Below, piece after piece: positions 1,843 to 21,545 of a DNA stretch of 32,839 nt. A program made the position numbers and the translations under genes. The DNA lies in assembly GCA_947507735.1 (NCBI GenBank), contig CANNRA010000003.1:1-32839 (forward strand), read 5' to 3'. Position 1 is the stretch's first letter; each line of letters begins with the position of its first letter. The notes beneath the pieces were generated by a model. That model was not told the DNA's origin and ran no database searches. It worked only from the letters and a program-made list of their open reading frames with translations. Source of the stretch: Actinomycetota bacterium. GTDB taxonomy: Bacteria; Actinomycetota; Thermoleophilia; Gaiellales; Gaiellaceae.

Positions 1843-1884
1843 ATGCCCCCGGCAAGAATCGAACTTGCGCTCACGGTTTAGGAA
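1843..1884 (-). repeat. attL: duplicated 3' fragment of tRNA-Arg(CCU)
   Basis: atgcccccggcaagaatcgaacttgcgctcacggtttaggaa identical to 17290-17331; no 5' half of tRNA follows. Confidence 0.95.
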
Positions 1885-1946
1885 GCGCGCTGGAGTCTTG
1901 GGCTTCTCCCTGTAAACGGCCACTTCGCGACCGAAGGGTTGGATGA

Positions 1947-1967
1947 TGCGCCAGTGATTGCGCCAGC
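1947..1967 (+). promoter_or_regulatory. Putative integrase arm-type site pair (attL side)
   Basis: TGCGCCAGT-gat-TGCGCCAGC; matching pairs near attR and between int and xis. Confidence 0.6.
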
Positions 1968-2056
1968 TGGACTTCAGAAAGGGAGCCCGACGAAGTAGCC
2001 GCGGCACAGCGTGACCACGAGGCGCTCGATCGATGGTCCTCATCGCTGACCCGAGA

Positions 2057-2656
2057 CTACGTAGGCAGCGAGACTCGCGACTGGAACCCGTAGAAGCGAT
2101 GAATCACGTCGTGCCGCCACGGCGCGGGGACACGGGCGACACGCCGCACGCCTCCAACCCGAAGACCTTCGTAGAGCTGAGCCGTCGGGACGGCGATTGG
2201 CTTCTTGAAGTCGAAGAAGATCTGAGGCATCGCGTCATCCGGGCCTTCGTCCCCGATGCCTGCGGTGTCGAATACGTGGTACCGCGCATTGTCATTTCGG
2301 ATGACAATCTTCCACGCCTTCGTTTCAGGGACGTGCTGCTTTACGTGTGCTTCGTCATAGACGTCGCACACGAGAACGTGGGGCACTGCCTTGGCCTTCG
2401 AATCGGCGTCGGCGGCCTGTGGGGTCAGGGCATTCTTGGAGTCGTCATCAGGGAACCGCTCGTTGAAGTCCCATACGAGATCGCAGTCGGGAGTCATGAC
2501 GATGACGAGCGCGTGCAAGAAAGATGTGATCGAGACTTCCAGGTCTGCCGGATGCTCGGTGGGCGGAATGCCTGGGCGGTGTTCCCATATCGGTCCGAGG
2601 ATCTCGCCCTGCTTGACAGGGCCGACAGCGGGCGACGCCTCGTAGCGAAAGCCCAC
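2057..2656 (-). CDS. Uncharacterised protein with QGEIL...VMTPDCDL motif, third gene of TIGR04255 cassette
   Basis: GTG start, GGAG upstream; VKQGEILGPI and ALVIVMTPDCDL motifs; 16 bp after preceding gene. Confidence 0.75.
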   Translation of the reverse strand: MGFRYEASPAVGPVKQGEILGPIWEHRPGIPPTEHPADLEVSITSFLHALVIVMTPDCDLVWDFNERFPDDDSKNALTPQAADADSKAKAVPHVLVCDVYDEAHVKQHVPETKAWKIVIRNDNARYHVFDTAGIGDEGPDDAMPQIFFDFKKPIAVPTAQLYEGLRVGGVRRVARVPAPWRHDVIHRFYGFQSRVSLPT

Positions 2657-2672
2657 CCGTCGCTCCAGCGCT

Positions 2673-2993
2673 TCAGTCAGCGACCACGAAGTGGGTGCGC
2701 TCGGCTAGCGCGGTGATCTTCGCCTTGCGCTCAATCACACGCTGTTGGACAGGTGCTGCGAGCAGCATCATCCGGTCGCGATGAAACTCCAGCATCTCAC
2801 CGAGCGACTCGACAGCCTCGTCGAGACCGTTCGGCGGCATCATGAAGAGAAGGGCATGGGCCATCATCCGCTTCGTCACCTCTTCTTGGCCGACGCCGCC
2901 AGTGGTGAACGCAAGGTCATACCCACCCGCGCAGAGCGTCCCGCTCAGGTCGTCGAACTCGACGGAGTGTCCCTCGGCCCTGCTAATCGTCAC
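2673..2993 (-). CDS. Small uncharacterised protein, middle gene of TIGR04255 cassette
   Basis: GTG at 2993 preceded by GGGGGAGC and overlapping TAG of upstream gene; VTISRAEGHSVEFDDLSGTLCAGGYDL... Confidence 0.65.
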   Translation of the reverse strand: MTISRAEGHSVEFDDLSGTLCAGGYDLAFTTGGVGQEEVTKRMMAHALLFMMPPNGLDEAVESLGEMLEFHRDRMMLLAAPVQQRVIERKAKITALAERTHFVVAD

Positions 2994-3765
2994 GCTCCCC
3001 CAGGGCAGCCCCCAAGCGAGGCTCGATGGCCCATCGGAATAGGTCGCCTGCCTGTCGGTTGAACTTGTCAAGCGTGACAAAAACTGCATCAGTGGCACTC
3101 CTCTCGTTGAGGAACCAGTCGGCATCGACGGTGAAGTGATCGCGGCTCGCGCCGTCTAGCAAGCCATGAACCAAGCGGACAGAGGCCCCCTGCGGGTCGT
3201 CCAGCGCGATGAACGTTTCGCCTCGGAGCGAGCGTACTCCTCCTCTGAGCGAAGGCTGATCAGCAAGCACGCCGAGCACGGCAGGAGACAGCAACTCGAC
3301 CCAGGGAACATCGGCGAGCCCAAGCCTCTCGCGATCGATCACGTCCCGGTAGCGAAGCCCGACCCTGCTGTAGAAGGCCGGCCGGTACACGTCCTCCAGC
3401 GCCTGCTTGGCGTGTTCGACCGCTTGCCGGAAGACCTCCCATCGCGAGTAGTTGTTGACGGAGATCGCCAAGAACTCGCTGGAGAGTGTCAGGCTTGCCG
3501 ATTCGTCCTCCGAGCTGAATCGGTGAGGGAAGGCCTCCTGGGAGACAGCGACGGGGAGCTCGGCAAGGAGCTTCGCCAGCCCTGCTGGCATGTTCAGCAC
3601 GGGCTCGACCCGAGAGTAGATCGGGTACACATCGCGGACGCGCTCCTGAAACGGTGCAGGTAGCTCAGCCGCGATCGCGAGGATGCTAGGGAAGGTGAGC
3701 TGGCAGATGACCTCGACGAGCGGGTTCTCGCGAAACACCAATCGGCGGGATTCGGGGAAGGACAT
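2983..3765 (-). CDS. TIGR04255 family protein
   Basis: RRLVFRENPLVEVICQLTFPSIL N-terminus, LTLSSEFLAISVNNYSRWEVF and YSRVGLRYRDVI typical of TIGR04255. Confidence 0.8.
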   Translation of the reverse strand: MSFPESRRLVFRENPLVEVICQLTFPSILAIAAELPAPFQERVRDVYPIYSRVEPVLNMPAGLAKLLAELPVAVSQEAFPHRFSSEDESASLTLSSEFLAISVNNYSRWEVFRQAVEHAKQALEDVYRPAFYSRVGLRYRDVIDRERLGLADVPWVELLSPAVLGVLADQPSLRGGVRSLRGETFIALDDPQGASVRLVHGLLDGASRDHFTVDADWFLNERSATDAVFVTLDKFNRQAGDLFRWAIEPRLGAALGERDD

Positions 3766-3994
3766 CAGCTTCTGTCCATGCGCACGAGCGTGGACACCCA
3801 CGCGCGTCTCATCCGAGCCATCATCGAATAGACCCTAGCGTTCCAAGCAGACACAGCAAAACGTGAACGTCAAAAATGCGCCATGAGCAGGAAGATCACG
3901 GTGGGGCACCCCTCGTCTCGCTGCCGCCCACCAAGACGGCAGCTCCGGCGGAGAGCGATTGCCCTCGGCCGGAGCCCACTTCGCGCAGGTGCCG

Positions 3995-5158
3995 CTAGGA
4001 AGCGGCCAGGTCATCCTCGAAGTACGTGTCGAGGCGGTCGGCCGCAGCAGCCTCACTGCCCCGCAGCAGGTGCCCGTAGCGATCCAACGTGGTCGCGACG
4101 CTCGCGTGCCCGATGTACGTGGAGATCTCCTTGACGTTCAGCCCGGTGTCGATCAGGAACGAGACAGCCGCGTGCCGAGCCACGTGAATCGACGTGACGG
4201 GAAGACCGGCCTCCTCCCATGCGTTCTTCGCCCGCCGGCTGACCGTCGAACCCACGAACGGCTTCACGCCGTCAGCGCCGAACACCAGCCCCGTCGACCG
4301 GCCCGTGCGGAGCCGGTGCTCGGCCAGCAGCGTCCGCAGCCGCTGCGTGAGAGGCACGACCCGCGTGCCCGCCTTGCTCTTCGGGACGATGAACTCCCGG
4401 GCCACACCGTCCCACCCGCGCTCCACCTTGACCGTCTTCGCATCCAGGTCAACGGCCGACCAGTCAAGCGCCTGGATCTCGCCGAGACGCAGCCCACCGT
4501 AGAACGCCGTCGCCCACAGGGCCCTGTCGCCGTCCGGCAGCGCCGCGAGGAGCTTCACCACATCGTCCTTCGTCACATCTGACCTCCTTGTGAGTTCGAC
4601 GGCAGGCATCTCGAGCCCGGCCGTCGGGTTGACAACAACATCGCCGCGCTTGCAGGCACGCCTGAAGATGGGCCGCAGCGGCATCAAGGTGTTCCGCACC
4701 GTGCTCGGACTCGCACCCCTGGCCAGCAGGCCGTCGGAGAAGTCTTGAAGATCAAGGCGGCTGAGGCTCGACAAACGGACGCTGCCGAACTCGGGCAGCA
4801 CCTCCGTCTCCATCGCCGCGCGATACCCGCGCAACGTGCTCGGCTTGAACTCGGCACCCTTCCGGGCACGGATCAGGCCGGAGCACGCCCCCGCGTACCA
4901 CTCATCCCAGGCCACCCGGACGGTCACCGGCGTCGGGGGCGCAAGCCGGCCCTTCCGCACGTCGACGACGGCGTCAGCGCGCCACGCCTTCGCAGCGGCC
5001 TTCGTCGGGAACGTCCGACGGATCTTCCGGCCGTGGCGGGCGTGATACGCCCATGCCTCCCAGCTGGGCGAGCACTTGCAGTCACCGCCGGCCTTCACCG
5101 GGCAGCCGCTGCGGTGACGGGGGCGCAGCCCCACCGGGTTATCCTTCGTCCGCGTCAC
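3995..5158 (-). CDS. int: Tyrosine recombinase / phage-type integrase
   Basis: Catalytic-domain motifs GGLRLGEIQALDW, SIHVARHAAVSFLIDTGLNVKEISTYIGHASVATTLDRYGHLL (R...HxxR...Y); N-terminal arm-binding-like region. Confidence 0.93.
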   Translation of the reverse strand: MTRTKDNPVGLRPRHRSGCPVKAGGDCKCSPSWEAWAYHARHGRKIRRTFPTKAAAKAWRADAVVDVRKGRLAPPTPVTVRVAWDEWYAGACSGLIRARKGAEFKPSTLRGYRAAMETEVLPEFGSVRLSSLSRLDLQDFSDGLLARGASPSTVRNTLMPLRPIFRRACKRGDVVVNPTAGLEMPAVELTRRSDVTKDDVVKLLAALPDGDRALWATAFYGGLRLGEIQALDWSAVDLDAKTVKVERGWDGVAREFIVPKSKAGTRVVPLTQRLRTLLAEHRLRTGRSTGLVFGADGVKPFVGSTVSRRAKNAWEEAGLPVTSIHVARHAAVSFLIDTGLNVKEISTYIGHASVATTLDRYGHLLRGSEAAAADRLDTYFEDDLAAS

Positions 5159-5250
5159 GATGCACCTCGTGTCGTCAGGGCGGGGCCGTTAGCGCGGTGC
5201 CCGCCCGTTGTCTCTTCCGGCATCAAGCTAACTCTGTGTGCCTGAACCAT

Positions 5251-5274
5251 CCAGTGCCCGCCGTCCGGCACTGG
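5251..5274. promoter_or_regulatory. 8-bp perfect inverted repeat in int-xis intergenic region
   Basis: CCAGTGCC-cgccgtcc-GGCACTGG. Confidence 0.5.
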
Positions 5275-5289
5275 CGCATTACTGGCGCA
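5270..5289 (-). promoter_or_regulatory. Putative integrase arm-type site pair in int-xis intergenic region
   Basis: Plus strand ACTGGCGCA-tt-ACTGGCGCA = minus strand TGCGCCAGT-aa-TGCGCCAGT. Confidence 0.55.
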
Positions 5290-5351
5290 CGCCTTCGCAA
5301 CCGCCCACAGCAAGCGGCCTCCCGGAACGCACACGGTTACGGAGGCCGCGT

Positions 5352-5624
5352 TCACAGGCCCTCCCGGAGCGTCCGCTCGGCGTGCGTGGCGACCCACTTC
5401 TGCAACTCGGCGACAGGCACGAGCACCAAGCGACCCCGCCGGATCAGCTTCAGCTCGGGCCGGACGTGCGTCGCGAAGAACTCCTCCGAGACACCGAGCG
5501 CCGCGATCGCTTCCTCCAAGCGATACGTGAGGCGCGGCACCGGCGGCACCTGCCGCGCGACCACCCCGCCGACAATCGCCTCCACGAGCAGCTCCAACAT
5601 CACCGGCGACGGCTGGGCGCTCAA
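5352..5624 (-). CDS. Excisionase-like helix-turn-helix protein
   Basis: RLTYRLEEAIAALGVSEEFFATHVRPELKLIRRGRLVLVPVAELQKWVATHA: MerR/Xis-type HTH; position upstream of int. Confidence 0.75.
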   Translation of the reverse strand: MSAQPSPVMLELLVEAIVGGVVARQVPPVPRLTYRLEEAIAALGVSEEFFATHVRPELKLIRRGRLVLVPVAELQKWVATHAERTLREGL

Positions 5625-5724
5625 CTCGACCGTCCCCGCATCAGAATCAGGAAGAGGCTGTAGTACCAGTACCTAAGGTTCTTGTTCTTGTTCTTCCTTA
5701 CGAGACAACATCTGTGATCTAGGG

Positions 5725-5925
5725 CAACTCCGATGCTGGTGGGGCGGGCGGCGGCCTTTTGCCCGTGGTTGGGCGGAATCCGGGGGGCGACGAACTCCGA
5801 TGACTTCTCCTCGATCTCCGAGCTGTGTCCGAAACGGCTAGACGGGTGAACTCCGAACGTCCGCTCGGTCACGGCCCCGCAGGCCGCGTGGTTGCGCCCA
5901 GCCTGGTGATCGCGGATCTCCGATG
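5725..5925. repeat. Iteron-like cluster, 5 copies of ~11-bp GAWCTCCGAWS
   Basis: CAACTCCGATG 5725-5735, GAACTCCGATG 5792-5802, GATCTCCGAGC 5813-5823, GAACTCCGAAC 5848-5858, GATCTCCGATG 5915-5925. Confidence 0.55.
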
Positions 5926-5940
5926 CGGTGGTGTGCGCGT

Positions 5941-6405
5941 TCACCGCGGCATATCCGATCCTTGACACGCTGCGAGACGCAGCTCGATGCGGTAGGCGGC
6001 GGTCTTGCCGCGGCCGGGAGGGTCGAACTCGATGTAGCCGCGGTCTCGGAGGTTCTTAAGGTCGTTCGCGATGCTGTCTCGGGACTTCTCGGGGAGGCCG
6101 AGAACGTCGAGCAGTTCGCGGATCTGCACAGTGACGGAGCCTGGCTGCGTGAAGTGATTCGCGGCCTGGTGCACGTTTAGGTGGACGAGGATCAGGTACT
6201 CGCGTTGGCTGATGAGGCCCGCGTTGCGCTCCCTGTACAGCCGTGTAGGAACCGGTGCGAACTGCTCGACACGCTTCCTCTGGCGGTCGTGCGTCCGGGC
6301 CGTCCGGGCAGCCTGCCCGAACTCATCGGAAGCGTCGCCAACCTTGAACTCCGGCATGTCGTCGTCAGAACCCGGCGCGTCGGGCAGGACGTAGTCGTCG
6401 CTCAC
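5941..6405 (-). CDS. Winged-helix DNA-binding protein, replication/regulation module
   Basis: LISQREYLILVHLNVHQAANHFTQPGSVTVQIRELLDVLGLPEKSRDSIANDLKNLRDRGYIEFDPPGRGKTAAYRIEL. Confidence 0.65.
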   Translation of the reverse strand: MSDDYVLPDAPGSDDDMPEFKVGDASDEFGQAARTARTHDRQRKRVEQFAPVPTRLYRERNAGLISQREYLILVHLNVHQAANHFTQPGSVTVQIRELLDVLGLPEKSRDSIANDLKNLRDRGYIEFDPPGRGKTAAYRIELRLAACQGSDMPR

Positions 6406-7181
6406 AGGAACTGCTCCCAGGGCGGCTGTGGGCGCGGGGAGAGGCGGGCGCGGCGGCGGCGAGCGTCGTCTTCGGCCCGCTTCAAGTGGCGGTCGAGTGC
6501 GTCCCTGCCGCCGTGAAGGTAGATGCTGCGGGCGTCGCGACCGTCGGGGAGCCTGACTGGGATCGCGTCCGGAACGTCGCGCACGACCTTCTGGTTCATC
6601 GCGCGGCCGGGACGGTCACCGTCTCCGAGCACGAAGACGCGGCCGAATGGGGAGACGTGCTTGGCCCACTCGGGCTTCCAGATCGTCGCGGATGGAAGGC
6701 CGATCACCGCGACTCCGTGGAATCGCGAGCCGTCGGGGACGCCGCGGTAGGCGCTGCGGCAGGCAAGGGTGTCGCTGTCGCCCTCGGCGACCAGCAGCAC
6801 CCAGCAGTGCCGCTCCTCGACGGGAGGAAGCGTCTCCAGGCCGAGCGGGATGATGGCCGCTTCCTTCGGCTCGCCCCACCACGGATTCCGACCGGGGGTA
6901 CGCCAAATCAGCTTCTCGCGGCAGAGCGACGCGTCCGGGTTCAGGTAGGGGATGCGAATCAGGCCACGCCTCTCGGTGACGAGAGCGGCACCCAGGACGT
7001 CGGGGTCGATGCCCTTCCAGTCAACGACCCACCTCCAGCCCTCGTTGAGCGGCGGAAGCCCAGGGGTCGACTTGTCAGCACCGTCCCCGGACGTGCCGAC
7101 CAGCGGCCCTGCAAGGTAGGAGATCGTGCCGGAGTGCAACTGGCCGTCTGCGGTGTGGCCGTTGGAGTCGCGTTTCGTCAC
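6402..7181 (-). CDS. Toprim-domain primase-like protein
   Basis: VLLVAEGDSDTLA and RVFVLGDGDRPGRAMNQKV (Toprim E and DxD motifs); GTG start overlapping TGA of methyltransferase (GTGA). Confidence 0.75.
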   Translation of the reverse strand: MTKRDSNGHTADGQLHSGTISYLAGPLVGTSGDGADKSTPGLPPLNEGWRWVVDWKGIDPDVLGAALVTERRGLIRIPYLNPDASLCREKLIWRTPGRNPWWGEPKEAAIIPLGLETLPPVEERHCWVLLVAEGDSDTLACRSAYRGVPDGSRFHGVAVIGLPSATIWKPEWAKHVSPFGRVFVLGDGDRPGRAMNQKVVRDVPDAIPVRLPDGRDARSIYLHGGRDALDRHLKRAEDDARRRRARLSPRPQPPWEQFL

Positions 7182-7996
7182 GCTTCCACCTGCTCGAACG
7201 GCACGGGAACGAGACGTAACCGGCGTGCCGCGAATGACGGATCCAGGTCGCAGAGGAGCGCCTTCCGGTCGCTCTCGCGGGCGGCGCGTCCGACGTTCCC
7301 GGAGCCGCAGAAGGGGTCGATCACGGTGTCGCCGGGAGCACTCCAATGGCGGATCAGCAGCGACAGCAAGTCGACCGGCTTCTCTGTCGGATAGGCGTCA
7401 CGGCCACGGACTCCCGGGTACCGCTGAACCGACCTGACGTTGCGGAAGTTCCCCTCCCTCCGGCCCTTCTCCAGGTCAAGGATGAACTCGTGCTGCGCCC
7501 TGACATCGGTGCCCATCCCGAGCTTGCACTTGTCCCAGACGATGCACCGCTTCACTTCGAACCCGACGGCCTTCGCAGCGGATTCGAAGATCGGGCGGTA
7601 CCACTCGTCGCAGAAGACGAGGCAGTGAGCGTTGGCTGCAAGCACCCTGTACAGCTCGCCGAAGACGGTCGGCCACACGTCGTCCGACGCGGTGTGCTCG
7701 AACCACTTCTTGAAGCTGCTGCCGCGCCGGTCGAAGAAGTAGGGCGGATCCGTGACGGCGAGGTCGACACTCTCCGATGGGAGAGACGCGAGCCAGTGTG
7801 TCGCGTCGCCTTCGACCAGGGTTACAAGGTCATCGCGTCGGGCGTCACGGCCTCGCCCGCGGTACGCCTTCTGCTTGCAAGCCGGGGTGCAGAAGCGCCG
7901 CTTCCGGCCGGTCTCCGGCTGCCAGAGCGGCGCTGAGCAGACCGGGCAGCGATCCGCCAGGGGTGGGCGCGAAGCCACAGCGAGCTTCGCGCTCAC
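7178..7996 (-). CDS. DNA (adenine-N6 or cytosine-N4) methyltransferase with N-terminal Cys motif
   Basis: DLAVTDPPYFFDR (motif IV), DPFCGSGNVGRAARES (motif I); N-term CPVC...CTPACK. Confidence 0.9.
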   Translation of the reverse strand: MSAKLAVASRPPLADRCPVCSAPLWQPETGRKRRFCTPACKQKAYRGRGRDARRDDLVTLVEGDATHWLASLPSESVDLAVTDPPYFFDRRGSSFKKWFEHTASDDVWPTVFGELYRVLAANAHCLVFCDEWYRPIFESAAKAVGFEVKRCIVWDKCKLGMGTDVRAQHEFILDLEKGRREGNFRNVRSVQRYPGVRGRDAYPTEKPVDLLSLLIRHWSAPGDTVIDPFCGSGNVGRAARESDRKALLCDLDPSFAARRLRLVPVPFEQVEA

Positions 7997-8601
7997 CAGC
8001 TGCCCTCCCCCGGGCGCAGCCCGGGAGCAGGGTCTTCGTCGCTACCGCCTCCTCGGGAGGGGTCGCCCGGCGACCGGGCGGTGCTCGAACGGCGGCGCGA
8101 ACGCGACGCGCGGGCGCGCGGGGCGCGCCGGATCATCGAGTCGTGCGGACGGCGGACGGGCTGCGGCGCACGTGACATAGGAACGGGCCGCGGCCGATAC
8201 GACCGCGCGATCTCCTCACGGCGCTCGTCGAACTTGCGATCCACCCTGTCCTCCGCAACGCCCTCCAGGTAGCCAGGGAGTTCGTCGTCAACGACAGACT
8301 CCAGCTCCCACAGCTCGGCCCTCACGGCGTCCTCGTAGTCCCAAGAAGTGAACTCGTTCAGCTGGCGAATGCGCCCGGCGAGTTCGGGATCGTGGGCGCA
8401 GATCTCACACCAGCGTTCCATGTACGCCGGGTGGAACGTCGTGCGGCCCTTCGCGCACTCCTGGAGGATCTGGATGTCTTCGGCGCTGAGGTCGGGGCCG
8501 AGGACGAAGTCCGGGTCAAAGTCGCACGCGCCTTCGGCGCGCAGGTCTTCCATCAGCTGGCGGCTAATCGCAGCGGCCTTCTCGGTGTCCTTCGTATTCA
8601 A
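7993..8601 (-). CDS. Hypothetical protein upstream of methyltransferase
   Basis: Long ORF overlapping methyltransferase start by 4 nt; acidic N-terminal half, Arg/Ser-rich tail; exact start uncertain (TTG or downstream ATG). Confidence 0.6.
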   Translation of the reverse strand: MNTKDTEKAAAISRQLMEDLRAEGACDFDPDFVLGPDLSAEDIQILQECAKGRTTFHPAYMERWCEICAHDPELAGRIRQLNEFTSWDYEDAVRAELWELESVVDDELPGYLEGVAEDRVDRKFDERREEIARSYRPRPVPMSRAPQPVRRPHDSMIRRAPRARASRSRRRSSTARSPGDPSRGGGSDEDPAPGLRPGEGSW

Positions 8602-8803
8602 GGCGACTGCATGGTAGGGCCAAGTACCGTCTGCTGCAACCGCAGTTTCTACTGCCTAACGCTCCCACTGCAGGCGCTGTGTTGGCCGGACGTGCAACAT
8701 GCTGGCTCGGCGGCGGCGGCAGCGGTACGAACGACGCGCTGCGTGGAACTCATGTGCCGCGTATCACGCCGATCGTGGCTCAGATGCAGCAGCGGGCGAT
8801 TCC

Positions 8804-10168
8804 CTAGAACGTCTTGGTCATCGCCTTTGGCTTAGTCATAGAAGATGGCTTGACGACGATCGTGCGGGTGAGTCGGGTGAGGTTCCCGAGCTTGTCACGG
8901 GCGACGATCGTGACCGTGTGTTTGCCGGGCTTCCACCCGGAGGCAGGCTTGAACGAGAGCGTCGTTGCTGGCCCGTAGGAACGAAGTGGCTTCCCATCGA
9001 CGGTGACTTGGACGGTGGCGATCTTGCTGCCGGTGGCGACGATGGCGACGGTGACGGACTGGTCGGGTGTGATGATCGCCGGGGGCAGGTTGATCGCCGG
9101 GCCGGTCGCGTCGATCTGAACTGTCGCGCTCCCGGTCGCGTGGTTGGCGTCGCTGTCCTTGACATCGAGGGCGAGCGTGTAGGTGCCTGCGGGCACGGGG
9201 CTACCGCTGGCGTCAAGACCATCCCAGGTGAGGCTGTGGTCTCCGGCCTTCACCAGAAGGTCAGTCGCGAGCGATCGCAGCGTCGAGCCGTCCGGGCTGG
9301 TGAGGGTGGCGTTCACGGTGGCATTGCGGCTGATCGAGTAGTCGGCGGTCAGCGGGTTGCCGGGACTACCGACCGGAGTGTCGAACGTGGGGCCGGTCAG
9401 CGACACGGGGCCGATGCCGATCTTGATCTGCCACTTTGCGGGCGGGCCGTCTTTCGCCTCGACCGTCAGTGGGTAGTAGTAGTTGGTGCGGAGGGTGCCG
9501 AAATCAAGATGGCCCGCTGAGGCAATCGTCTTCGTGGTGTTTCCGAAGCTGATCGTCACGGCCCCCTGGGTGACGCTGACATCGGCGACGTAATGGCCGC
9601 TCTCCAGCGCCGTGAAGGCGAGGGTGGAAGTTCCGGGAGGGGGGTATCCGGTACCGGGATTCGAGTCGACGCCCGCGAACACCACCGGCGTGGAAGGCGC
9701 ATCGTAGAACTCGAAGGTGAACGAACTCCCTGGGGAGCACGCGTACACATGGGTGCCGACCTTATCCCCGTTTCGAACGTCGAAGTTGCTCGTGTGCCGG
9801 AGCCGAGTCCAAGTCGCGGACTGCGCGGGAAGCGTGATTCCTTCAGTGCCGAAGAGACTGACGGCAACATCAGCGGTGTCCTGGCTAATCGCGCGAACGA
9901 GCACGACCTCGTGATTACCCGACGCCGTGGCGTCATCAGTCGCGAGCATGTAGGTCGATCCGGTCGCGTACTCGATCGGATCACTCTGTCGCGAACACGC
10001 AGCGTTCAACGTCAGGAACGGCTTGACCGTTGCCGCGCTCGCAACGGGGGCGGCGATCCATACGACCGCCAGGAGGATCGCAGCCGCCACCAGAAGACCG
10101 CGGGAAGCGATCACCTGACGCCCTGAGTCCATCGAGACGACCCGCCATCGACGCGTCACTCCACTCAT
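8804..10168 (-). CDS. Secreted protein with FlgD-type Ig-like domain
   Basis: Signal peptide LLVAAAILLAVVWIAAPVASAA; NATVNATLTSPDGSTLRSL...GDHSLTWDGLDASGSPVPAGTYTLALDVKDS (FlgD Ig-like). Confidence 0.8.
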   Translation of the reverse strand: MSGVTRRWRVVSMDSGRQVIASRGLLVAAAILLAVVWIAAPVASAATVKPFLTLNAACSRQSDPIEYATGSTYMLATDDATASGNHEVVLVRAISQDTADVAVSLFGTEGITLPAQSATWTRLRHTSNFDVRNGDKVGTHVYACSPGSSFTFEFYDAPSTPVVFAGVDSNPGTGYPPPGTSTLAFTALESGHYVADVSVTQGAVTISFGNTTKTIASAGHLDFGTLRTNYYYPLTVEAKDGPPAKWQIKIGIGPVSLTGPTFDTPVGSPGNPLTADYSISRNATVNATLTSPDGSTLRSLATDLLVKAGDHSLTWDGLDASGSPVPAGTYTLALDVKDSDANHATGSATVQIDATGPAINLPPAIITPDQSVTVAIVATGSKIATVQVTVDGKPLRSYGPATTLSFKPASGWKPGKHTVTIVARDKLGNLTRLTRTIVVKPSSMTKPKAMTKTF

Positions 10169-10291
10169 CGAAACGTCACCCCCTCTTCGGTTACACCGCT
10201 CCGAGCCACCGGCAGCGACATCACACGCGGCTTATGCAATCACATGCGAATGCGGTGGCCTTAGACGGAGCTTACGACGACCCTGGGCTGC

Positions 10292-10549
10292 GTGGAGTTC
10301 TCGCCCCGCCACCGCGCTCTCGGAGATGCCATCCGCGCAGCTCGCAAGAGCCGCGGCGTCAGCCAGGAGCAGCTCGGCTTCGCGTCCGGGCTGCACCGAA
10401 ACCACGTTGGTGGCGTCGAGCGTGGCGACCTGAACCCCGCTATTGGCACGCTTTGGCGGCTCGCCGATGGCCTCGGGGTTCCCCTGTCCGAACTCCTTGC
10501 CGACGCCGAGCGCCTGGACGCCGCGCGTCATGCGGGACACTCCGGCTGA
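10292..10549 (+). CDS. XRE-family HTH transcriptional regulator
   Basis: LGDAIRAARKSRGVSQEQLGFASGLHRNHVGGVERGDLNPAIGTLWRLADGLGVPLSELL. Confidence 0.9.
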   Translation: MEFSPRHRALGDAIRAARKSRGVSQEQLGFASGLHRNHVGGVERGDLNPAIGTLWRLADGLGVPLSELLADAERLDAARHAGHSG

Positions 10550-10749
10550 TCGTCGGTCGGCAGGTCGCCGCGAAACAGCGCGCGCCCCATCGACCAAACC
10601 TCGCCACTCGTTGCCTCGTCCCCGAGAAGCTGCCCGGCGACCACGAGCGCCAGGTCGAAGCGCGCGCGGAGGGCGTCGGTGGTCGCATCCGCGGGGTACG
10701 CGAGTCCACGCCCGGGCGCGGTAGGCGGAGGTTGTTCGACGTCGCTCAC
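10528..10749 (-). CDS. Small hypothetical protein convergent with XRE regulator
   Basis: GTG at 10749; VSDVEQPPPTAPGRGLAYPADATTDALRARFDLALVVAGQLL...; 3' end overlaps XRE 3' end by 22 bp. Confidence 0.45.
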   Translation of the reverse strand: MSDVEQPPPTAPGRGLAYPADATTDALRARFDLALVVAGQLLGDEATSGEVWSMGRALFRGDLPTDDQPECPA

Positions 10750-10966
10750 GGCACACAGAGGTAGCTCTGTTGTGCCCTCGCAGCAAGTCGTTGGGGCGGA
10801 AACCGGGGTTGCCCGTATACGGATCAATCTGTTCCGCCCTGCTTCTGCTTTGCAGCCCGAATGTCCCGATGAACTGAGCGCTTTCGCACTGGATGCGACG
10901 GAGGTCGTTGAGCTACTGTCGGCGCGCCTCGGACGAGGCAGAAGCCGAATGCGAACGGAGGATCAA

Positions 10967-11167
10967 ATGGCTCGGAGAAGCGTCACGGTGAGCGACCTGT
11001 CGGGCGTCGAGATCCCAGAGGGGTCGGGTGCGACCGTCGTCATCAGGTTCGCCGACGAACGGCGGGGGGCGATCACGATGGACGTCACGGTGGAGGAGGC
11101 GCTCGAACTCGGGAAGAGCGGCCGCAAGCAGGCCCGGCGCGGCCGAAAGCCGACCGGCAAGGAGTAG
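10967..11167 (+). CDS. Small basic-tailed protein, possibly Lsr2 N-terminal-like
   Basis: GGAGG 5 nt before ATG; MARRSVTVSDLSGVEIPEGSGATVVIRFADERRGAITMDVTVEEALELGKSGRKQARRGRKPTGKE. Confidence 0.65.
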   Translation: MARRSVTVSDLSGVEIPEGSGATVVIRFADERRGAITMDVTVEEALELGKSGRKQARRGRKPTGKE

Positions 11168-11254
11168 CTGGCAAGAGCACGACCCGGAGCGCGGCGGACT
11201 GCCTCCGAGCAGGTCTCTCCCAGGGGAGGTGCGGCGGCGTGGGGCCGGTGGCGC

Positions 11255-12040
11255 TTAGCGCCGTTGTCGCGCCGCTCGCAGTTCGCTTTCGAGTGCGACG
11301 ACCGAGGATCGGAGCGCCTCGACCTGGCGCAGGATGAGTTCGTCGTGTTCTTCGAGCGTCTCGACTTCCTCCTCGATCACGCGTGCCTCGGACGCGAGGA
11401 AAGCCTGGGCTATGGCACCGGTGACGAGGGCGAACATGCTGATCCCGGCGACCATGACGACGACCGCAGTCACGCGGCCCACGACCGTGACCGGGTAGAG
11501 GTCACCGTAACCGACGGTGGCGCTTGTGACGACCGCCCACCAGATGGCGGTACCAAACGTCTTGTGTTCGGAGTGGGCGAAGACGGCTGCGCCGCTGACG
11601 ATGATGAGCGACGCGAACATCGCGGCGTGTTTGAGTCCACCCGGGGTCAGAAGCTGCCGTAATCGAGAGAAGGCTGGCAAGAGCCGAAGCAGGCGGAGCA
11701 GGCGAAGAAGCCGCGAGAGGCGAGCAAGCCGGAGCACGCCGAGTCCCGCTGGCAAGACCGGGAACGTCACGATGGTGATGGCGACCATGAACCACTGCGA
11801 GCGCAGCCAGGTGCGCCGGGCGGGGTCGAACGCGATCCGCGCGCTTAGCTCGGCCGCGAAGACAGACCAGGACACCCAGTCGAGCACGGTGGCGGCGTGC
11901 CGCAATCCACGGTCGCTGGAGTCCCCGAGGACAAGTGCCGGGATGACGATGATCGCTGCCGCGATGACCGCGATGTCGAAGGCGATCCACACCGGCACGG
12001 CGCGCCCGCGGATGACAAGATCCTGATCGGCCGTTGACAC
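11255..12040 (-). CDS. Voltage-gated K+ channel (6TM-type) with C-terminal coiled coil
   Basis: S4-like LRLARLSRLLRLLRLLRLLPAFSRLRQLL; selectivity filter TSATVGYGDLYPVT; C-term coiled-coil-like EEEVETLEEHDELILRQVEALRSSV. Confidence 0.93.
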   Translation of the reverse strand: MSTADQDLVIRGRAVPVWIAFDIAVIAAAIIVIPALVLGDSSDRGLRHAATVLDWVSWSVFAAELSARIAFDPARRTWLRSQWFMVAITIVTFPVLPAGLGVLRLARLSRLLRLLRLLRLLPAFSRLRQLLTPGGLKHAAMFASLIIVSGAAVFAHSEHKTFGTAIWWAVVTSATVGYGDLYPVTVVGRVTAVVVMVAGISMFALVTGAIAQAFLASEARVIEEEVETLEEHDELILRQVEALRSSVVALESELRAARQRR

Positions 12041-12070
12041 ACTGGGAACCTACGGCAAAGCTGCTTCGGC

Positions 12071-13111
12071 ATGGCGGACAGACGGGGAGGCATCGCACTC
12101 GTCGCAGCAGTGGCACTAGCCCTGATGCTGTCGGTCAGCGCCGCTGCTGACACGCCGCCTGCCGGTGCGACGGCGCAGTGCACGGACGGCACCTACAGCT
12201 TCTCGCAGACGCGCTCCGGAACGTGTTCGCATCACGGCGGCGTTGCCACCTGGCTGACGGCTTCGTCGGCTCCTGCCACGACGGCGGCCACAACAACCGC
12301 TCCGGCCCCGCCACCCCCGGTCACGACGGCCCCGGCCACCACCACCACGGCTGCGCCGACTACGACCGCTCCCGTACCCGCGGTCACGACTAGCGCAACA
12401 ACGACAGCGGCGGCTCCCGCCGCGACCACGACGACTCCAGCGGTGGTCGCGGTGGCTCCGGTAGGTGCGACGGCGCGCTGCCGTGACGGCTCGTTCAGCT
12501 TCTCGCAGACCCGGTCGGGAACCTGCTCTCGACACGGTGGCGTGCAGACCTGGCTCGCGGCCACTGGTGGCGCGACCGGTACAGCGGCGACCACGACCGC
12601 CCCGGCACCGTCCACGGCTGCTCCGTCGTCATCGGCCGCTGATTCGCCCGGCGTCGGGGTGACGGTGCTTCTTGCGCCCAGATCGAAGTCCACGGGCTGC
12701 AAGCGCGGCCCGAACCCCGACCGAGCCTGCTCCCCGGGCGCGTACTACACCGGCCTCACCGCGAGCGTGCTCTGCTCGTCAGGCTTCCACACCAGCACCA
12801 TCCGGAACGTGCCCGACTCCGAGAAGCACGCCGTCGAAGCCGAGTATGGGATGCCGCCAGGTGCGTACGGGAGCACCATCGAGATCGACCACATCGTCTC
12901 GCTCGAACTCGGCGGCTCCAACGACATCGCGAACCTCTTCCCTGAACCCGGCAGTGGCCCGGCGAGCTACCACGCGAAGGACAAGCTGGAGAACAAGCTA
13001 CACGCGCTCGTCTGCACTGGCGCTATGGCCCTACGTGCCGCCCAGCGCGGGATCGCCGCGAACTGGCAGGGCCTCTACCGGCAGGTCTTCGGCGTCGCCC
13101 CGACCAGCTGA
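12071..13111 (+). CDS. Secreted HNH endonuclease-like protein with two DUF3761 modules
   Basis: Signal peptide; GATAQCTDGTYSFSQTRSGTCSHHGGVATWL and GATARCRDGSFSFSQTRSGTCSRHGGVQTWL; Ala/Thr/Pro linkers; IEIDHIVSLELGGSNDIANLFPE. Confidence 0.85.
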   Translation: MADRRGGIALVAAVALALMLSVSAAADTPPAGATAQCTDGTYSFSQTRSGTCSHHGGVATWLTASSAPATTAATTTAPAPPPPVTTAPATTTTAAPTTTAPVPAVTTSATTTAAAPAATTTTPAVVAVAPVGATARCRDGSFSFSQTRSGTCSRHGGVQTWLAATGGATGTAATTTAPAPSTAAPSSSAADSPGVGVTVLLAPRSKSTGCKRGPNPDRACSPGAYYTGLTASVLCSSGFHTSTIRNVPDSEKHAVEAEYGMPPGAYGSTIEIDHIVSLELGGSNDIANLFPEPGSGPASYHAKDKLENKLHALVCTGAMALRAAQRGIAANWQGLYRQVFGVAPTS

Positions 13112-13119
13112 CCTGACCG

Positions 13120-13305
13120 ATGATCGTCTACGGCCTCGCGTCCGATCTGAGCCACGACGCCGAGCTGTTCGTCCGCCGAGAGGACGCCGAGCGGGAACTC
13201 GCTGACGCCCTCAACGACATGCCGGAATGGCGGGACGTGGTCTACATCGTCGCGATCGACCTCGGCGGGGGTGAGCCGACGGTGGCGCGGCTTCCGACTC
13301 CTTAG
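13120..13305 (+). CDS. Small hypothetical protein downstream of secreted HNH gene
   Basis: MIVYGLASDLSHDAELFVRREDAERELADALNDMPEWRDVVYIVAIDLGG...; 8 bp after preceding stop. Confidence 0.6.
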   Translation: MIVYGLASDLSHDAELFVRREDAERELADALNDMPEWRDVVYIVAIDLGGGEPTVARLPTP

Positions 13306-13709
13306 CTCGGCCGTCGTGGGGTGTTCGGCACCCGGTAGCGGCGGCATAGGTCGAGCAACGCCGGGAGTGCGTCGTGCCGGTGCGCGTCGAGGAGAACGAG
13401 CGCGAGTCTGGAGTCCGGGAGCGTGAGTCCCGAGACTGTGAGCGCGAACCGCGCGTGCCAGCGGACGGCTGCCCGCTCGAACCGGTCGGGCTGATGGACG
13501 CGGATGAGTTCGAGCAGCCGGAGCGCGTCACCGAGCGGGAGCGGTGCGAGGTCGCGAGCGAGCGCATCGGCCTGCAGGAAGTTGCCTCGGTCGAGCGCGC
13601 GTTGGAGCTGTCCGTGGAGGGATCCCTGCGAAGTCAAGACGAACAGATGTTCCCACACGGCCGCCGATGCTTGGACGGCGACTCCCCGCGCGCTCGACCT
13701 CGTCTCCAC
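13302..13709 (-). CDS. Hypothetical protein
   Basis: ORF with coherent amphipathic helices (LHGQLQRALDRGNFLQADALARDLAPLPLGDALRLLELIRVHQPDRFERAAVRWHARF...). Confidence 0.6.
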   Translation of the reverse strand: METRSSARGVAVQASAAVWEHLFVLTSQGSLHGQLQRALDRGNFLQADALARDLAPLPLGDALRLLELIRVHQPDRFERAAVRWHARFALTVSGLTLPDSRLALVLLDAHRHDALPALLDLCRRYRVPNTPRRPS

Positions 13710-13721
13710 GGCCGCGCGCTC

Positions 13722-14255
13722 TCACCGATAGCTGCTGTCGTCCCAGCCTTCCCGAACTCTCCTGGCCCGAAGGAGCCTCTCGTTCTCCACAGCCTGCTCG
13801 CGAGAGTCGTACTCGACCACATCGAGCACCACCTCGCCCCCTCGTCCCGCCCGAAGGAGGTCATAGAGCCAGGGGATCGAGTCAGGCTCCGAGAGACGGC
13901 CCTTGCACGTCGCGACCCATCGGCTTCTGAGACGGCTGTACAGGTGCGTCGCCATCCCGGACTGAGCGCACTTCCCCTCCGGCCATGACAAGTCGTACGT
14001 CCAGGCGGCAACTGCCTCCGACGTCTCGCGATCGCGGGCGCTGACGAGCCAGTCGGGTTCGCCGCCAACATCGAGCGGGCCACCCTCAAAGAAGCACTCG
14101 GAGCACCGCCGCCGCTCCCGCTTGGCGTTCGTTACCCGCCTCACCTTGAACGAAGCTTGTTCCCGCTCACACAAGATTCGACAGTGACGGCTGAGGTGCT
14201 TCAGCTCCGGGCCACCGTCGCCTTCGGCATAGCCCGAGTTGATGTAGACAGCCAC
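13722..14255 (-). CDS. Putative zinc-binding protein with possible divergent GIY-YIG-like region
   Basis: N-term HLSRHCRILC...RRCSECFF; central TYDLSWPEGKCAQSGMATHLYSRLRSRW; C-term VVEYDSREQAVENERLLRA. Confidence 0.6.
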   Translation of the reverse strand: MAVYINSGYAEGDGGPELKHLSRHCRILCEREQASFKVRRVTNAKRERRRCSECFFEGGPLDVGGEPDWLVSARDRETSEAVAAWTYDLSWPEGKCAQSGMATHLYSRLRSRWVATCKGRLSEPDSIPWLYDLLRAGRGGEVVLDVVEYDSREQAVENERLLRARRVREGWDDSSYR

Positions 14256-14435
14256 GGCTGAACGCTACGTCAGACCCACGCCCAGGTCGAATCCGGGCGG
14301 GCGAACGAGAGCCGGATCCCTTGTCTCGTCCAAGCCAACGCTGGGTGCGACTGGGGGTCTCGCCCGCGAGCACGACCTGCCGCTCAGCGGTGCCCGAATT
14401 GGCGATTCCACCTCGGCGGGAGCAATGATCGCGGC

Positions 14436-15113
14436 ATGAGCGATCCGACCGACCGAGCCGACCGCTTCACGTGGAAGGCGGGCGAAATCGTCTGGACGAA
14501 ACCGCCCGCGGGACACAACTTCCCAGCGGGTGACCCTGGCGAGCCGCCCCTGACGCCGCACGAAGGCTCGTGTGACGACGACCACCGCCAGGCCGACACC
14601 ACGCCCGCCGCACGCCCCTTCCGGCACCTAACCCCGGAGAACTGGCGACTCCCCGACCCCACGTCCGCGCAGTTCGTCAGGGACGCCGACAAGTGGGCGG
14701 CGCTGATCCTGGAGATCGACCTCGACGCTGACGTGCCCGCGCCCGTTCGGGACAACTTCGAGATCGCCCGTGGCCTCGCCGCCTACGCCCACTTCTTCTA
14801 CCCGTTCCACATGCTCGCCATCGAGCACCTCGGCCGGGTCGCCGAAGTCGCGGCACGAATCCGGTGCGAGCAGCTCGGCCGCCGCAAGCTCGCGTCCTTC
14901 AAGGGGAACATCGCCTGGCTGGCCGCAGAGGGGTACATCAGCACGGATCAACGCGGGTGGTGGGACACCGCGCTCCACTTCCGCAACACCGGGTCGCACC
15001 TCGCCGACTACCGCGCCATTCCACCAGCGGTCGTACACAACGTGGTCGAGTCGGGAGCCGCAGCTATCAACGACCTCGTCCGCGATTCGTCGGCCACTCA
15101 CCCGCGTGAGTAG
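14436..15113 (+). CDS. HEPN-like helical protein (candidate RNase/Abi-like)
   Basis: WWDTALHFRNTGSHLADYRAIPP contains RNxxxH (Rx4H) HEPN-type motif in a helical C-terminal domain. Confidence 0.55.
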   Translation: MSDPTDRADRFTWKAGEIVWTKPPAGHNFPAGDPGEPPLTPHEGSCDDDHRQADTTPAARPFRHLTPENWRLPDPTSAQFVRDADKWAALILEIDLDADVPAPVRDNFEIARGLAAYAHFFYPFHMLAIEHLGRVAEVAARIRCEQLGRRKLASFKGNIAWLAAEGYISTDQRGWWDTALHFRNTGSHLADYRAIPPAVVHNVVESGAAAINDLVRDSSATHPRE

Positions 15114-15159
15114 CGACTCCGATCAGATGACCGCGTAGCGGTCTCGCCAGCACACGCGG

Positions 15160-15984
15160 CTAGACGTCGCTGCTGACTTCGGCGTGCCTCTTCAAGAAGG
15201 TAATCCAACTTCGAGCGGGCACCCCAGCGAGCGGTTGGTCGAGCATCCGCTCGACGTACTCGTCCATCACTCCGACCCGTGCGATCCGTCCGAAGTTGCC
15301 GCCGGAGTCGGTGATCGCCCTGTCGCTGATCTTCTCCTTCTTCATCGGGTACGGCGGCAGATCACCAACACCAGAAGGACGGACGATGCTGCGGTCATCC
15401 TCAGCTCTCTGCCACTGCTTCTCGTGCTCCCACCAGTGGTTTCGCTTCTCCGCCGCCCACCGCGCTCTCTCGATGAAGGGCTGAAGCACAACTGGACGAC
15501 CAGAGAGGACGTTCGTCAGGTACCAAGGAACAACGACTAGAAGATCCCACTGGGAGCAAGCGTCAGGATCGACCTTGTAGCGGAAGCTAGGCTCTGCCTC
15601 CTTCGAGAGCAGGTACCAGCCCTTCAACTCGATCCCGAACTTGACTTCTCGATTGCCGTTCGGAAGTCCGAGCTCGAACCGCACATCAGGGAACACCTGC
15701 TCGTAGCGGCGAAACCCGTACAGCTTCACCTCGTCGGTTTCCCACACTTCGCGAATGAGATTCAGTGTCCGGACGACCTGAACTTCGATGGACGCACCCA
15801 GCGTCGAACTCAGGGTGAAGAGATCAGTCGCGCCAACACCTTCGATGTTCGTCTCTGAACGGAAGTAGTTTGGAAGAGCGATCAGGGCTTCCTGCACGCG
15901 CTGCCAGACTTCGACGAGTCCTGGGTCACCCACGGGCGGAGCATCGGGACGCTCCGGTGGTGGAGGAGGCGCGGCGGCAGCCAT
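15160..15984 (-). CDS. Putative Type II restriction endonuclease, PD-(D/E)XK-like
   Basis: QVFPDVRFELGLPNGNREVKFGIELKGWYLLSKEAEPSFRYKV (PD...ExK); adjacent to methyltransferase. Confidence 0.65.
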   Translation of the reverse strand: MAAAAPPPPPERPDAPPVGDPGLVEVWQRVQEALIALPNYFRSETNIEGVGATDLFTLSSTLGASIEVQVVRTLNLIREVWETDEVKLYGFRRYEQVFPDVRFELGLPNGNREVKFGIELKGWYLLSKEAEPSFRYKVDPDACSQWDLLVVVPWYLTNVLSGRPVVLQPFIERARWAAEKRNHWWEHEKQWQRAEDDRSIVRPSGVGDLPPYPMKKEKISDRAITDSGGNFGRIARVGVMDEYVERMLDQPLAGVPARSWITFLKRHAEVSSDV

Positions 15985-16016
15985 CCTCGGATCGTATGCC
16001 GGAGGGCAGACGGCGC

Positions 16017-17042
16017 TTAGAGTTCAGCGTGCGTGCTTCTTAGACGCTCGACTGCGACTCGGTAGAAGACTTCGTTTAGTTCCGCGCCGTACCCCTCGCG
16101 ATTGCTGAGCGCAGCTGCAACAAGCGCCGTGGCCGTTCCAGCGAACGGCTCCCAGACCACGGCCCCTTCGTCGGAAGTCCAACGGATCGTGTCACGAACG
16201 AGCGACAGCGGCTTCTGGTTCATGTGGACGCTTCGCCCATTCAGTTTGATCCGTTCAGCGCCGCGAACGGCGGGATGGTGCCAGACGTTGTGCCTGTCAG
16301 GCGGACAGTGAAACGTCGGCCGTAGGGCATCCCACTCTTCGGCGCTGACCGGTGCCTCTCCGTCCAGTGAGAAGTACGGAGTGTCGCTAGGTTCACCGTG
16401 TTCGTTCGCGTATTCGGCCAACTTCGCTAGCGCCTCACCGGGCGGCGCGTACCACAGGTGACATGCTGTGAACCACTTGCGCGTCGCAGCATTCTTGACG
16501 CCTGCAGCCTGATTCGTCAGCGACATCGGTAGCCGTGTTCGCTGCCATTCGGCGCGCAGCCAATCCTTCATCGGCACCTGCTTGCCGTCTTCGCCGCGTG
16601 GAAGCAAGACCTTCCGCACGTACTGGACACACAGCTCCGTGACCGCGGGAAGCTGACGAAGGGTCTTTGAGTTGGCGTTACCCGCAACGTGACCTGCACC
16701 CTTGTCCCAGACACACGCACGGACGTATGACCATCCCGCCGAGTCCAGAAGCGGATGAACGGTGGCCCAGCCGATCTCGGAACACCAGAACCACAGTGTT
16801 GTAGATGGCTTGGCCCGTTTCGACCATGCGAGGACGTGCGGCTCGTAGACCTTCGCGAGCGAGTTGACCGTGGGTGGGTCGCCCGGAAACGATCGAAGGC
16901 CGTAAGGGCCGTCTGAGACAACTACGTCGGGAGCAGGCCAACTGTCGTAGCAAGACAAGGCGTCAGCAAGCGACAGATGCGTTCCACCCTGGGTGAACAT
17001 CTTCCGAGCCTTAGCGCGAGCGGGAGCGGCCACGACCCTCAC
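16017..17042 (-). CDS. DNA methyltransferase (N4/N6 amino type), R-M partner
   Basis: VVVSDGPYGLRSFPGDP (motif IV variant), HMNQKPLSLVRDTIRWTSDEGAVVWEPFAGTATALVAA (motif I); GTG start, alternative ATG at 17000. Confidence 0.85.
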   Translation of the reverse strand: MRVVAAPARAKARKMFTQGGTHLSLADALSCYDSWPAPDVVVSDGPYGLRSFPGDPPTVNSLAKVYEPHVLAWSKRAKPSTTLWFWCSEIGWATVHPLLDSAGWSYVRACVWDKGAGHVAGNANSKTLRQLPAVTELCVQYVRKVLLPRGEDGKQVPMKDWLRAEWQRTRLPMSLTNQAAGVKNAATRKWFTACHLWYAPPGEALAKLAEYANEHGEPSDTPYFSLDGEAPVSAEEWDALRPTFHCPPDRHNVWHHPAVRGAERIKLNGRSVHMNQKPLSLVRDTIRWTSDEGAVVWEPFAGTATALVAAALSNREGYGAELNEVFYRVAVERLRSTHAEL

Positions 17043-17161
17043 GGTAGAGATTCTCCCGGACGCGCCGCGGCTCGCTACGTAACGACGGCGTTAGCGAGTC
17101 GCCGCTGGTACCCGAGGCCCAAGCAGAGCGCTACGGGCAGTCGCGGCCGAATCCACGGCGT

Positions 17162-17182
17162 TGCGCCAGTGAATGCGCCAGT
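17162..17182 (+). promoter_or_regulatory. Putative integrase arm-type site pair (attR side)
   Basis: TGCGCCAGT-gaa-TGCGCCAGT, same orientation and 12-bp period as the pair at 1947-1967. Confidence 0.6.
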
Positions 17183-17190
17183 CGTCGCCC

Positions 17191-17220
17191 GGTTCCAGCG
17201 GGTTCAGGCGGATTCCAGCG
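17191..17220 (+). repeat. Three 10-bp phased imperfect repeats adjacent to attR
   Basis: GGTTCCAGCG GGTTCAGGCG GATTCCAGCG. Confidence 0.6.
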
Positions 17221-17289
17221 GAACTCGGTGCGTCGGCCAGGCCGCGGTGAAACTGCTGCACGTTGGCGTCTTCCGCTCAACCATGCGGT

Positions 17290-17331
17290 ATGCCCCCGGC
17301 AAGAATCGAACTTGCGCTCACGGTTTAGGAA
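17290..17331 (-). repeat. attR core (3' part of tRNA-Arg)
   Basis: 42-bp identical to 1843-1884. Confidence 0.95.
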
Positions 17332-17362
17332 ACCGATGCTCTATCCACTGAGCTACGGGGGC
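17291..17362 (-). tRNA. tRNA-Arg (anticodon CCU)
   Basis: GCCCCCGUAGCUCAGUGGAUAGAGCAUCGGUUUCCUAAACCGUGAGCGCAAGUUCGAUUCUUGCCGGGGGCA; 7-bp acceptor stem and T stem pair, loop UUCCUAA. Confidence 0.95.
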
Positions 17363-19041: not shown

Positions 19042-19113
19042 GGAGACTCTCCCCGGGCGGCCTGCCGTCATGAAAACGCTGCACGACCCTGGTTTCCGCC
19101 TCTCCCGGCGCTA

Positions 19114-19137
19114 CGTGGCCCGGCGTGCCGGGCCACG
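19114..19137. terminator. Strong hairpin in convergent intergenic region
   Basis: CGTGGCCCGGC-gt-GCCGGGCCACG, 11-bp perfect arms between convergent gene ends 19041 and 19182; no U-tract. Confidence 0.5.
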
Positions 19138-19156: not shown

Positions 19157-19181
19157 AACCCGACCGCTCCCGCGCCGTCCG

Positions 19182-21488: not shown

Positions 21489-21498
21489 GGCGCCGCGG

Positions 21499-21543: not shown

Positions 21544-21545
21544 CC

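What the first reader, a model, noticed from the sequence alone, without database searches (positions are those of the whole stretch)
1843..17331. Defence-loaded island without conjugation or virion genes: possible satellite-like element in a poorly studied lineage
Integrase, Xis-like, Toprim, winged-helix and methyltransferase genes form a replication/integration core. I see no FtsK/TraB translocase (so not a classic AICE), no relaxase and no capsid or terminase genes. Cargo is rich in nuclease/defence-like genes at both ends. This resembles phage-satellite or hitchhiking-island architecture, but satellite status is inference.
Basis: inference. Interest (0 to 1): 0.7.

Follow-up and report, generated by a model that had tools for sequence, protein, structure and literature searches.

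The report
tRNA-nested genomic island carrying restriction-modification
A 15.4-kb mobile island sits in an arginine tRNA gene of an uncultured actinobacterium (order Gaiellales); it has its own insertion machinery and one DNA-cutting defence pair but nothing that shows how it moves between cells, so calling it a phage satellite is not justified, although it belongs to a recognisable set of sister islands.

Summary
The island is real. An exact 42-bp repeat (1843-1884, 17290-17331), the 3' half of tRNA-Arg(CCT), bounds 15.4 kb. The Int, Xis-like, winged-helix, Toprim and methyltransferase genes are there; Pfam and PHROGs find no relaxase, FtsK/TraB, capsid, portal or terminase. Cargo is only partly defence: the right-end type II R-M pair is well supported; the left-end genes (TIGR04255 family plus an unknown) have no shown defence role. 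The satellite reading has no positive support: no packaging gene, and no terminase or HK97-capsid hit in the MAG. New: the integrase recurs (44-51% identity) in 12 other genomes of the family, and the seven islands I could bound (4-19 kb, five tRNA types) share one attachment anatomy: paired ACTG[G/T]CGC repeats 100-111 bp inside the core on the tRNA side and usually 35-63 bp on the other. Their contents vary widely (R-M, a DUF499/SNF2 locus, Fic, one broken MobF relaxase). Best reading: an integrative, probably helper-dependent genomic island with phage-type integrase and arm sites and perhaps its own primase/initiator; the transfer route is unknown. New member of a known kind.

The parts
1843..1884 (.). 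attachment core, distal copy (42 nt)
   Evidence: 100% identical to 17290-17331
17290..17331 (.). attachment core inside the 3' half of tRNA-Arg(CCT)
17291..17362 (-). tRNA-Arg(CCT), integration target, left intact
   Evidence: ARAGORN and Rfam RF00005 69.1 bits
1947..1966 (+). paired direct repeat, putative integrase arm-type site, far end, 62 bp from core
   Evidence: 0 expected by shuffling; conserved geometry in 7 of 7 bounded islands
17162..17181 (+). paired direct repeat, putative integrase arm-type site, tRNA side, 109 bp from core
   Evidence: also in same-genus G311 next to its tRNA-Arg(CCT) (L050:207-226)
5271..5289 (-). third paired repeat, inverted, between xis and int: putative autoregulatory site
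   Evidence: an inverted third pair also in the G079 island (L091:9456)
3995..5158 (-). tyrosine integrase (387 aa) with Cys-rich N-terminal segment
   Evidence: Pfam PF00589 1.2e-19, PHROG_1 5.8e-63; relatives in 12 other genomes of the family
5352..5624 (-). Xis-like HTH protein (90 aa)
   Evidence: weak HMM (PHROG_66 0.0084); homologues near the integrase in most relatives
5725..5923 (+). five copies of (C/G)A(A/T)CTCCGA beside an AT-richer stretch: candidate iteron origin
   Evidence: reached in 1 of 300 shuffles; weak
5941..6405 (-). winged-helix protein, putative replication initiator
   Evidence: weak LexA/HTH_36/DnaD-like hits; the Xis-neighbour gene of sister island L094 is an O-like replication initiator (PHROG_270 5.2e-6)
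6402..7184 (-). Toprim primase fragment, start set at GTG 7184
   Evidence: PHROG_849 4.2e-11; 44-46% identical gene in a 7.3-kb tRNA-Val island of G079
7178..7996 (-). N6/N4 DNA methyltransferase of the core operon
   Evidence: Pfam PF01555 2e-30
7993..8601 (-). 202-aa protein of unknown function, first gene of the core operon
   Evidence: overlaps the next gene by 4 bases; no family hit below E 0.05
15160..15984 (-). type II restriction endonuclease
   Evidence: PADLOC REase_II 4e-9; 50.6% identical gene beside a methyltransferase on plasmid pRWAY04
16017..17042 (-). partner DNA methyltransferase
   Evidence: Pfam PF01555 9e-15; 47% identical to the pRWAY04 partner
2983..3801 (-). TIGR04255-family protein, function unknown
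   Evidence: NCBIfam 4.6e-36
2057..2656 (-). unknown cargo protein (199 aa)
   Evidence: coding-like GC3; no hit in Pfam, NCBIfam, PHROGs, PADLOC
8804..10168 (-). secreted Ig-like (FlgD_ig, Big_13) protein
10292..10549 (+). XRE-type regulator
   Evidence: HTH_3 5.6e-14
11255..12040 (-). ion channel protein
   Evidence: Ion_trans 7.3e-17
12071..13111 (+). secreted protein with two DUF3761 repeats and an HNH-like end
   Evidence: DUF3761 1.4e-33, HNH 0.014

Best explanation
A site-specific integrative genomic island. Shown from sequence: it is inserted in the 3' half of tRNA-Arg(CCT), leaves the tRNA intact, and has an integrase, an Xis-like gene and repeats with the anatomy of integrase arm-type sites at both ends. 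Inferred: the integrase recombines the two 42-bp cores with the arm pairs as its second DNA contact, the Xis-like protein turns the reaction towards excision, and the inverted pair upstream of int lets the integrase regulate itself. After excision the circle is thought to be copied by the island's winged-helix initiator and Toprim primase with the host's DnaB helicase, perhaps from the repeat cluster at 5725-5923. The R-M pair (and possibly the core methyltransferase) would help it persist and block other elements. It has no recognised transfer genes, so movement between cells would need a helper (conjugative element or phage) or occur passively; which one is not determined.
For: Exact 42-bp repeat with tRNA anatomy. 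Three paired repeats against 0 expected in shuffles. The same geometry, orientation and unit type (ACTG[G/T]CGC) in seven of seven bounded islands using this integrase family, at tRNA-Arg, SeC, Trp, Cys and Ser genes. Published precedent: cluster J mycobacteriophages have paired direct-repeat arm-type sites flanking the core and a further inverted set at the int start (PMC3706429). Toprim related to split actinophage primases. O-like replication initiator next to Xis in sister island L094. R-M pair with its two genes side by side on plasmids. Lower GC (61-69%) than the flanking chromosome (70-74%).
Against: No excised circle or empty site for this exact island was observed; the replication role of wH and Toprim and the iteron cluster rest on weak hits; no helicase gene is present; the wH, Toprim and MTase module is unique among the genomes searched, so its coherence as a replication module is not tested by comparison.
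Confidence: 0.75

Rival explanations
1. A phage satellite: it replicates with its own primase and is packaged in the particles of a helper phage, while its R-M and methyltransferase protect the host.
For: Size (15.4 kb), phage-type integrase and arm sites, primase and MTase of phage affinity; small actinobacterial elements under 15 kb have been suggested to include satellites (PMC10023795).
Against: No capsid, terminase, packaging or capsid-redirecting gene; no TerL or HK97-capsid hit in the MAG; no related Toprim, wH or Int found in IMG/VR; a sister island has MobF relaxase pieces.
Confidence: 0.1
2. A mobilizable island (IME-like) moved by a conjugative helper, carrying an oriT but no relaxase.
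For: A sister island in tRNA-Ser of G229 with the same Int family and arm sites carries TrwC-type relaxase pieces (L096:6795-9690; Pfam TrwC 1.8e-23).
Against: No relaxase in this island; no oriT was sought with a model for this lineage; the only sister relaxase is split by frame breaks.
Confidence: 0.15
3. A decayed prophage that lost its virion genes.
For: Integrase, primase and methyltransferase have phage relatives.
Against: Exact attachment repeats and intact overlapping core genes; seven islands with this integrase family and arm anatomy, at different tRNAs and 4-19 kb, with no virion family among the hits listed, so this looks like a stable kind of island rather than one decayed phage.
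Confidence: 0.1

Closest known systems
tRNA-nested genomic islands / 'hitcher' elements of unknown mobility (review PMC11389934)
   Same: own tyrosine integrase, tRNA site, cargo, no transfer genes
   Different: carries its own primase-like gene and putative initiator; arm-site signature shared within its bacterial family
Integration cassette of cluster J mycobacteriophages (PMC3706429)
   Same: tyrosine integrase, 44-bp core in a tRNA gene, paired direct-repeat arm-type sites on both sides and a further inverted set at int
   Different: unit sequence (ACTG[G/T]CGC against TGCATAC...); the best phage integrases are only about 30% identical and their matches do not cover the N-terminal segment
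AICE (actinomycete integrative and conjugative element)
   Same: Int, Xis and replication genes in a tRNA site (general knowledge)
   Different: no FtsK/TraB-type translocase and no recognised AICE replication initiator
Phage satellites (PICI, cfPICI, P4-like, PLE)
   Same: integrase, primase, defence cargo, size
   Different: no redirecting, packaging or capsid gene and no known helper
7.3-kb tRNA-Val island in Gaiella sp. MAG JAOSJZ010000001 (G079)
   Same: closest Toprim (44-46%)
   Different: distant integrase (26% identity); helicase-like partner gene instead of wH and MTase

Membership tests
Integrative genomic island with tyrosine integrase | direct repeats bounding the element, one inside a tRNA | tested here: met
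Integrative genomic island with tyrosine integrase | integrase of the phage family within the element | tested here: met
Integrative genomic island with tyrosine integrase | excision to a circle | not testable with these tools
   no reads available
AICE | FtsK/TraB-like DNA translocase | tested here: not met
   no hit
Phage satellite | capsid, terminase or packaging/redirecting gene | tested here: not met
   no hit
Phage satellite | helper phage in the same genome | tested here: inconclusive
   no PF03354 or PF05065 match in G000, but the MAG is 94% complete, other terminase and capsid families were not searched, and helpers need not be resident
Phage satellite | induced and packaged by a helper | not testable with these tools
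   needs culture or virome data
IME | relaxase gene | tested here: not met
   present but broken in one sister island
IME | oriT recognised by a helper | not tested
   no oriT model for this lineage
Type II restriction-modification system (15160-17042) | adjacent cognate REase and MTase, pair conserved elsewhere | tested here: met

The most novel reading that the evidence does not exclude
A family-wide set of small Gaiellales hitchhiker elements, recognisable by their ACTG[G/T]CGC arm-site pairs, that exchange replication and defence modules around a common integrase and travel by a route not yet described, this island being a replication-competent member (wH + Toprim, host DnaB).
Probability: 0.2. 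Interest if true: 0.55.

Novelty: new member of a known kind. Interest (0 to 1): 0.33.

Why it matters
Gaiellales are widespread but hardly cultured, and my literature searches turned up nothing on their mobile islands. The arm-site signature gives a way to delimit such islands in MAGs even when the tRNA repeat is displaced by an insertion sequence, and shows one integrase family serving at least five tRNA types with very different cargo, including defence systems.

Tried and rejected
Clustering by the wH, Toprim and MTase core: no second copy. Relatives of the core in IMG/VR: none for Toprim, wH and Int; MTase hits were only generic methylases at 31-39% identity. An operon shared between the TIGR04255 gene and its Rhizobium neighbours: the two flanking genes are not homologous by BLASTP. 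Structure of the winged-helix protein from one sequence: pLDDT 62, too poor to search. Empty site: the same-genus genome G345 has its own 1.75-kb tRNA-Arg insertion, and G311's contig stops inside the right end of what looks like a sister island, so neither gives an empty site. L104 (weak wH hit in G221): neighbours are transport genes, not an island. The G345 insertion does not have the ACTG[G/T]CGC pair, so it probably belongs to another integrase.

Full report
Boundaries. The window is one whole contig (G000:C3, 32,839 bases) of a 2.16-Mb, 94%-complete MAG. A 42-nt sequence occurs at 1843-1884 and 17290-17331 with no mismatch. The second copy is the 3' half of tRNA-Arg(CCT), 17291-17362 on the minus strand, from the anticodon to the 3' end. 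The island is therefore 15,447 bp from core to core, and its GC (mostly 61-69%) is below that of the flanking chromosome (70-74%).

Genes. One minus-strand block holds a 202-aa unknown, an N6/N4 methyltransferase, a Toprim protein, a winged-helix protein, an Xis-like protein and the integrase (8601 to 3995). The first four overlap by a few bases; a gap of about 320 bp sets off xis and one of about 190 bp sets off int. The integrase and methyltransferase are certain. The Toprim protein matches PHROG_849 DNA primase (4.2e-11) and by tblastn the C-terminal half of primases that are split into two genes in Streptomyces phages; no zinc-binding primase half was recognised. The winged-helix and Xis-like proteins have only weak matches of their own. 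Cargo: a TIGR04255-family protein (4.6e-36) and an unknown at the left end; a secreted Ig-like protein, an XRE regulator, an ion channel and a secreted DUF3761/HNH protein in the middle; several unknowns; and at the right end a restriction endonuclease and methyltransferase pair. That pair has relatives lying side by side on plasmids of Rhodococcus and Cupriavidus (47% for the methyltransferase), so it is a real type II R-M unit. No relaxase, FtsK/TraB, capsid, portal or terminase was found. 'Defence-loaded at both ends' is thus half right.

Attachment sites. A tandem pair of TGCGCCAG units lies 62 bp inside the left core and 109 bp inside the right core, and a third, inverted pair lies between xis and int; shuffled sequence gives none. 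I then fetched relatives of the integrase: 12 other genomes of the family have one, the better ones at 44-51% identity over most of the protein. Six of these could be bounded by direct repeats at a tRNA: tRNA-SeC in G079 (10.5 kb), Trp in G285 (9.6 kb), Arg(CCT) in G259 (4.0 kb), Cys in G243 (13.7 kb), and Ser (13.7 kb) and Arg(CCT) (18.7 kb) in G229. All six, and the window, have a pair of ACTG[G/T]CGC-type units 100-111 bp inside the core on the tRNA side and another pair near the far core, in the same orientation relative to the core. The far pair is 35-63 bp from the core in six; in G229-Arg it is 1,315 bp away, with IS3-type transposase genes lying in between. The unit varies between islands but is nearly constant within one. 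The period is 12 bp at the far end and 11 bp at the tRNA end, the window being the exception (12 at both). Randomly placed segment pairs meet the criterion in 0.04-0.3% of draws; six of seven islands meet it, the seventh being the one with the displaced far pair. I set that criterion after seeing the first islands; the G243 and G229-Ser cases came out afterwards. A third, inverted pair was found in the window and in G079 only. The closest published match is the cluster J mycobacteriophage cassette: paired direct-repeat arm-type sites on both sides of a tRNA core and further inverted units at the start of int, for which the authors raise autoregulation (PMC3706429). I infer that these are integrase arm sites; binding is not shown. 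The integrases share a conserved Cys-rich N-terminal segment (RHxxxC...CxC), the part that phage integrase matches do not cover.

Same site, same genus. G311 has, next to its tRNA-Arg(CCT), the same pair in about 130 bp of sequence alike to the window's right end, and its contig then stops: probably a sister island, though the integrase was not found in that incomplete genome. tRNA-Arg(CCT) is used by at least three islands of this integrase family (window, G229, G259) and by another insertion in G345.

What the sister islands carry. R-M of the Eco29kI kind in G079; a DUF499, SNF2 helicase and methylase locus of defence type in G229-Arg; Fic in G259; XRE plus a nucleotidyltransferase-like gene in several; and TrwC/MobF relaxase pieces in G229-Ser. 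In G285 the gene next to the Xis-like one is an O-like replication initiator (5.2e-6), which is the best support for reading the window's winged-helix gene, also next to Xis, as an initiator. Direct comparison of the proteins is weak (E 0.008 with G079, nothing with G285). The summary scans of these islands list only the 25 commonest families, so a single virion gene could be hidden there.

Replication. Between xis and the winged-helix gene are five copies of a CTCCGA-centred 9-mer over 200 bp beside an AT-richer stretch. One of 300 shuffles does as well, but 7 of 200 other window segments also reach five or more of some 9-mer, so this is only a candidate origin. There is no helicase gene; use of host DnaB is inference.

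Satellite or not. No capsid, packaging or redirecting gene; no TerL or HK97-capsid hit in the MAG, while the same searches find such genes in a few other genomes of the order; no relative of Toprim, wH or Int in IMG/VR. One sister has relaxase pieces. None of this excludes a satellite, since helpers need not be resident and some helper-dependent elements lack genes or motifs recognisable as shared with a helper (PMC11389934), but nothing supports it. I file the island as an integrative genomic island of undetermined transfer route.

Noticed in passing
L006:16061-20000 and L007:1-3400 (G079, Gaiella sp. MAG JAOSJZ010000001): A 7.3-kb island in tRNA-Val(GAC) (25-nt repeat) with a distant integrase, a helicase-like gene (DUF3631-like by eye) and the closest relative of the window's Toprim.
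   Followed up: partly
L096:6795-9690 (G229): MobF/TrwC relaxase-helicase in two reading frames (frame break or assembly error) inside a tRNA-Ser island with the same integrase family.
   Followed up: partly
L085:17904-19886 and L108:1-9798 (G229): Large SNF2 helicase, DUF499 ATPase, methylase-like and AAA ATPase locus in the tRNA-Arg(CCT) island; IS3-type transposase genes lie just before its far core.
   Followed up: partly
L048:10253-12070 (G345, same genus): 1.75-kb insertion in the same tRNA-Arg(CCT) with an att copy 1 mismatch from the window's, and a different tRNA 3' half; its end repeats are not of the ACTG[G/T]CGC type.
   Followed up: no
window 17554-24066: Multicopper-oxidase-like gene and following genes lie between the tRNA and the block (from 24223) that is syntenic in G311 and G345, so the window has extra DNA on the other side of the tRNA too.
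   Followed up: no
L009 (G002): Contig with a CHC2-Toprim/ATPase gene, terminase-like genes and an integrase near tRNA-Thr: probably a prophage or phage-like element.
   Followed up: no
window 12071-13111: Secreted protein with two DUF3761 repeats, Thr/Ala/Pro-rich linkers and an HNH-like end.
   Followed up: no
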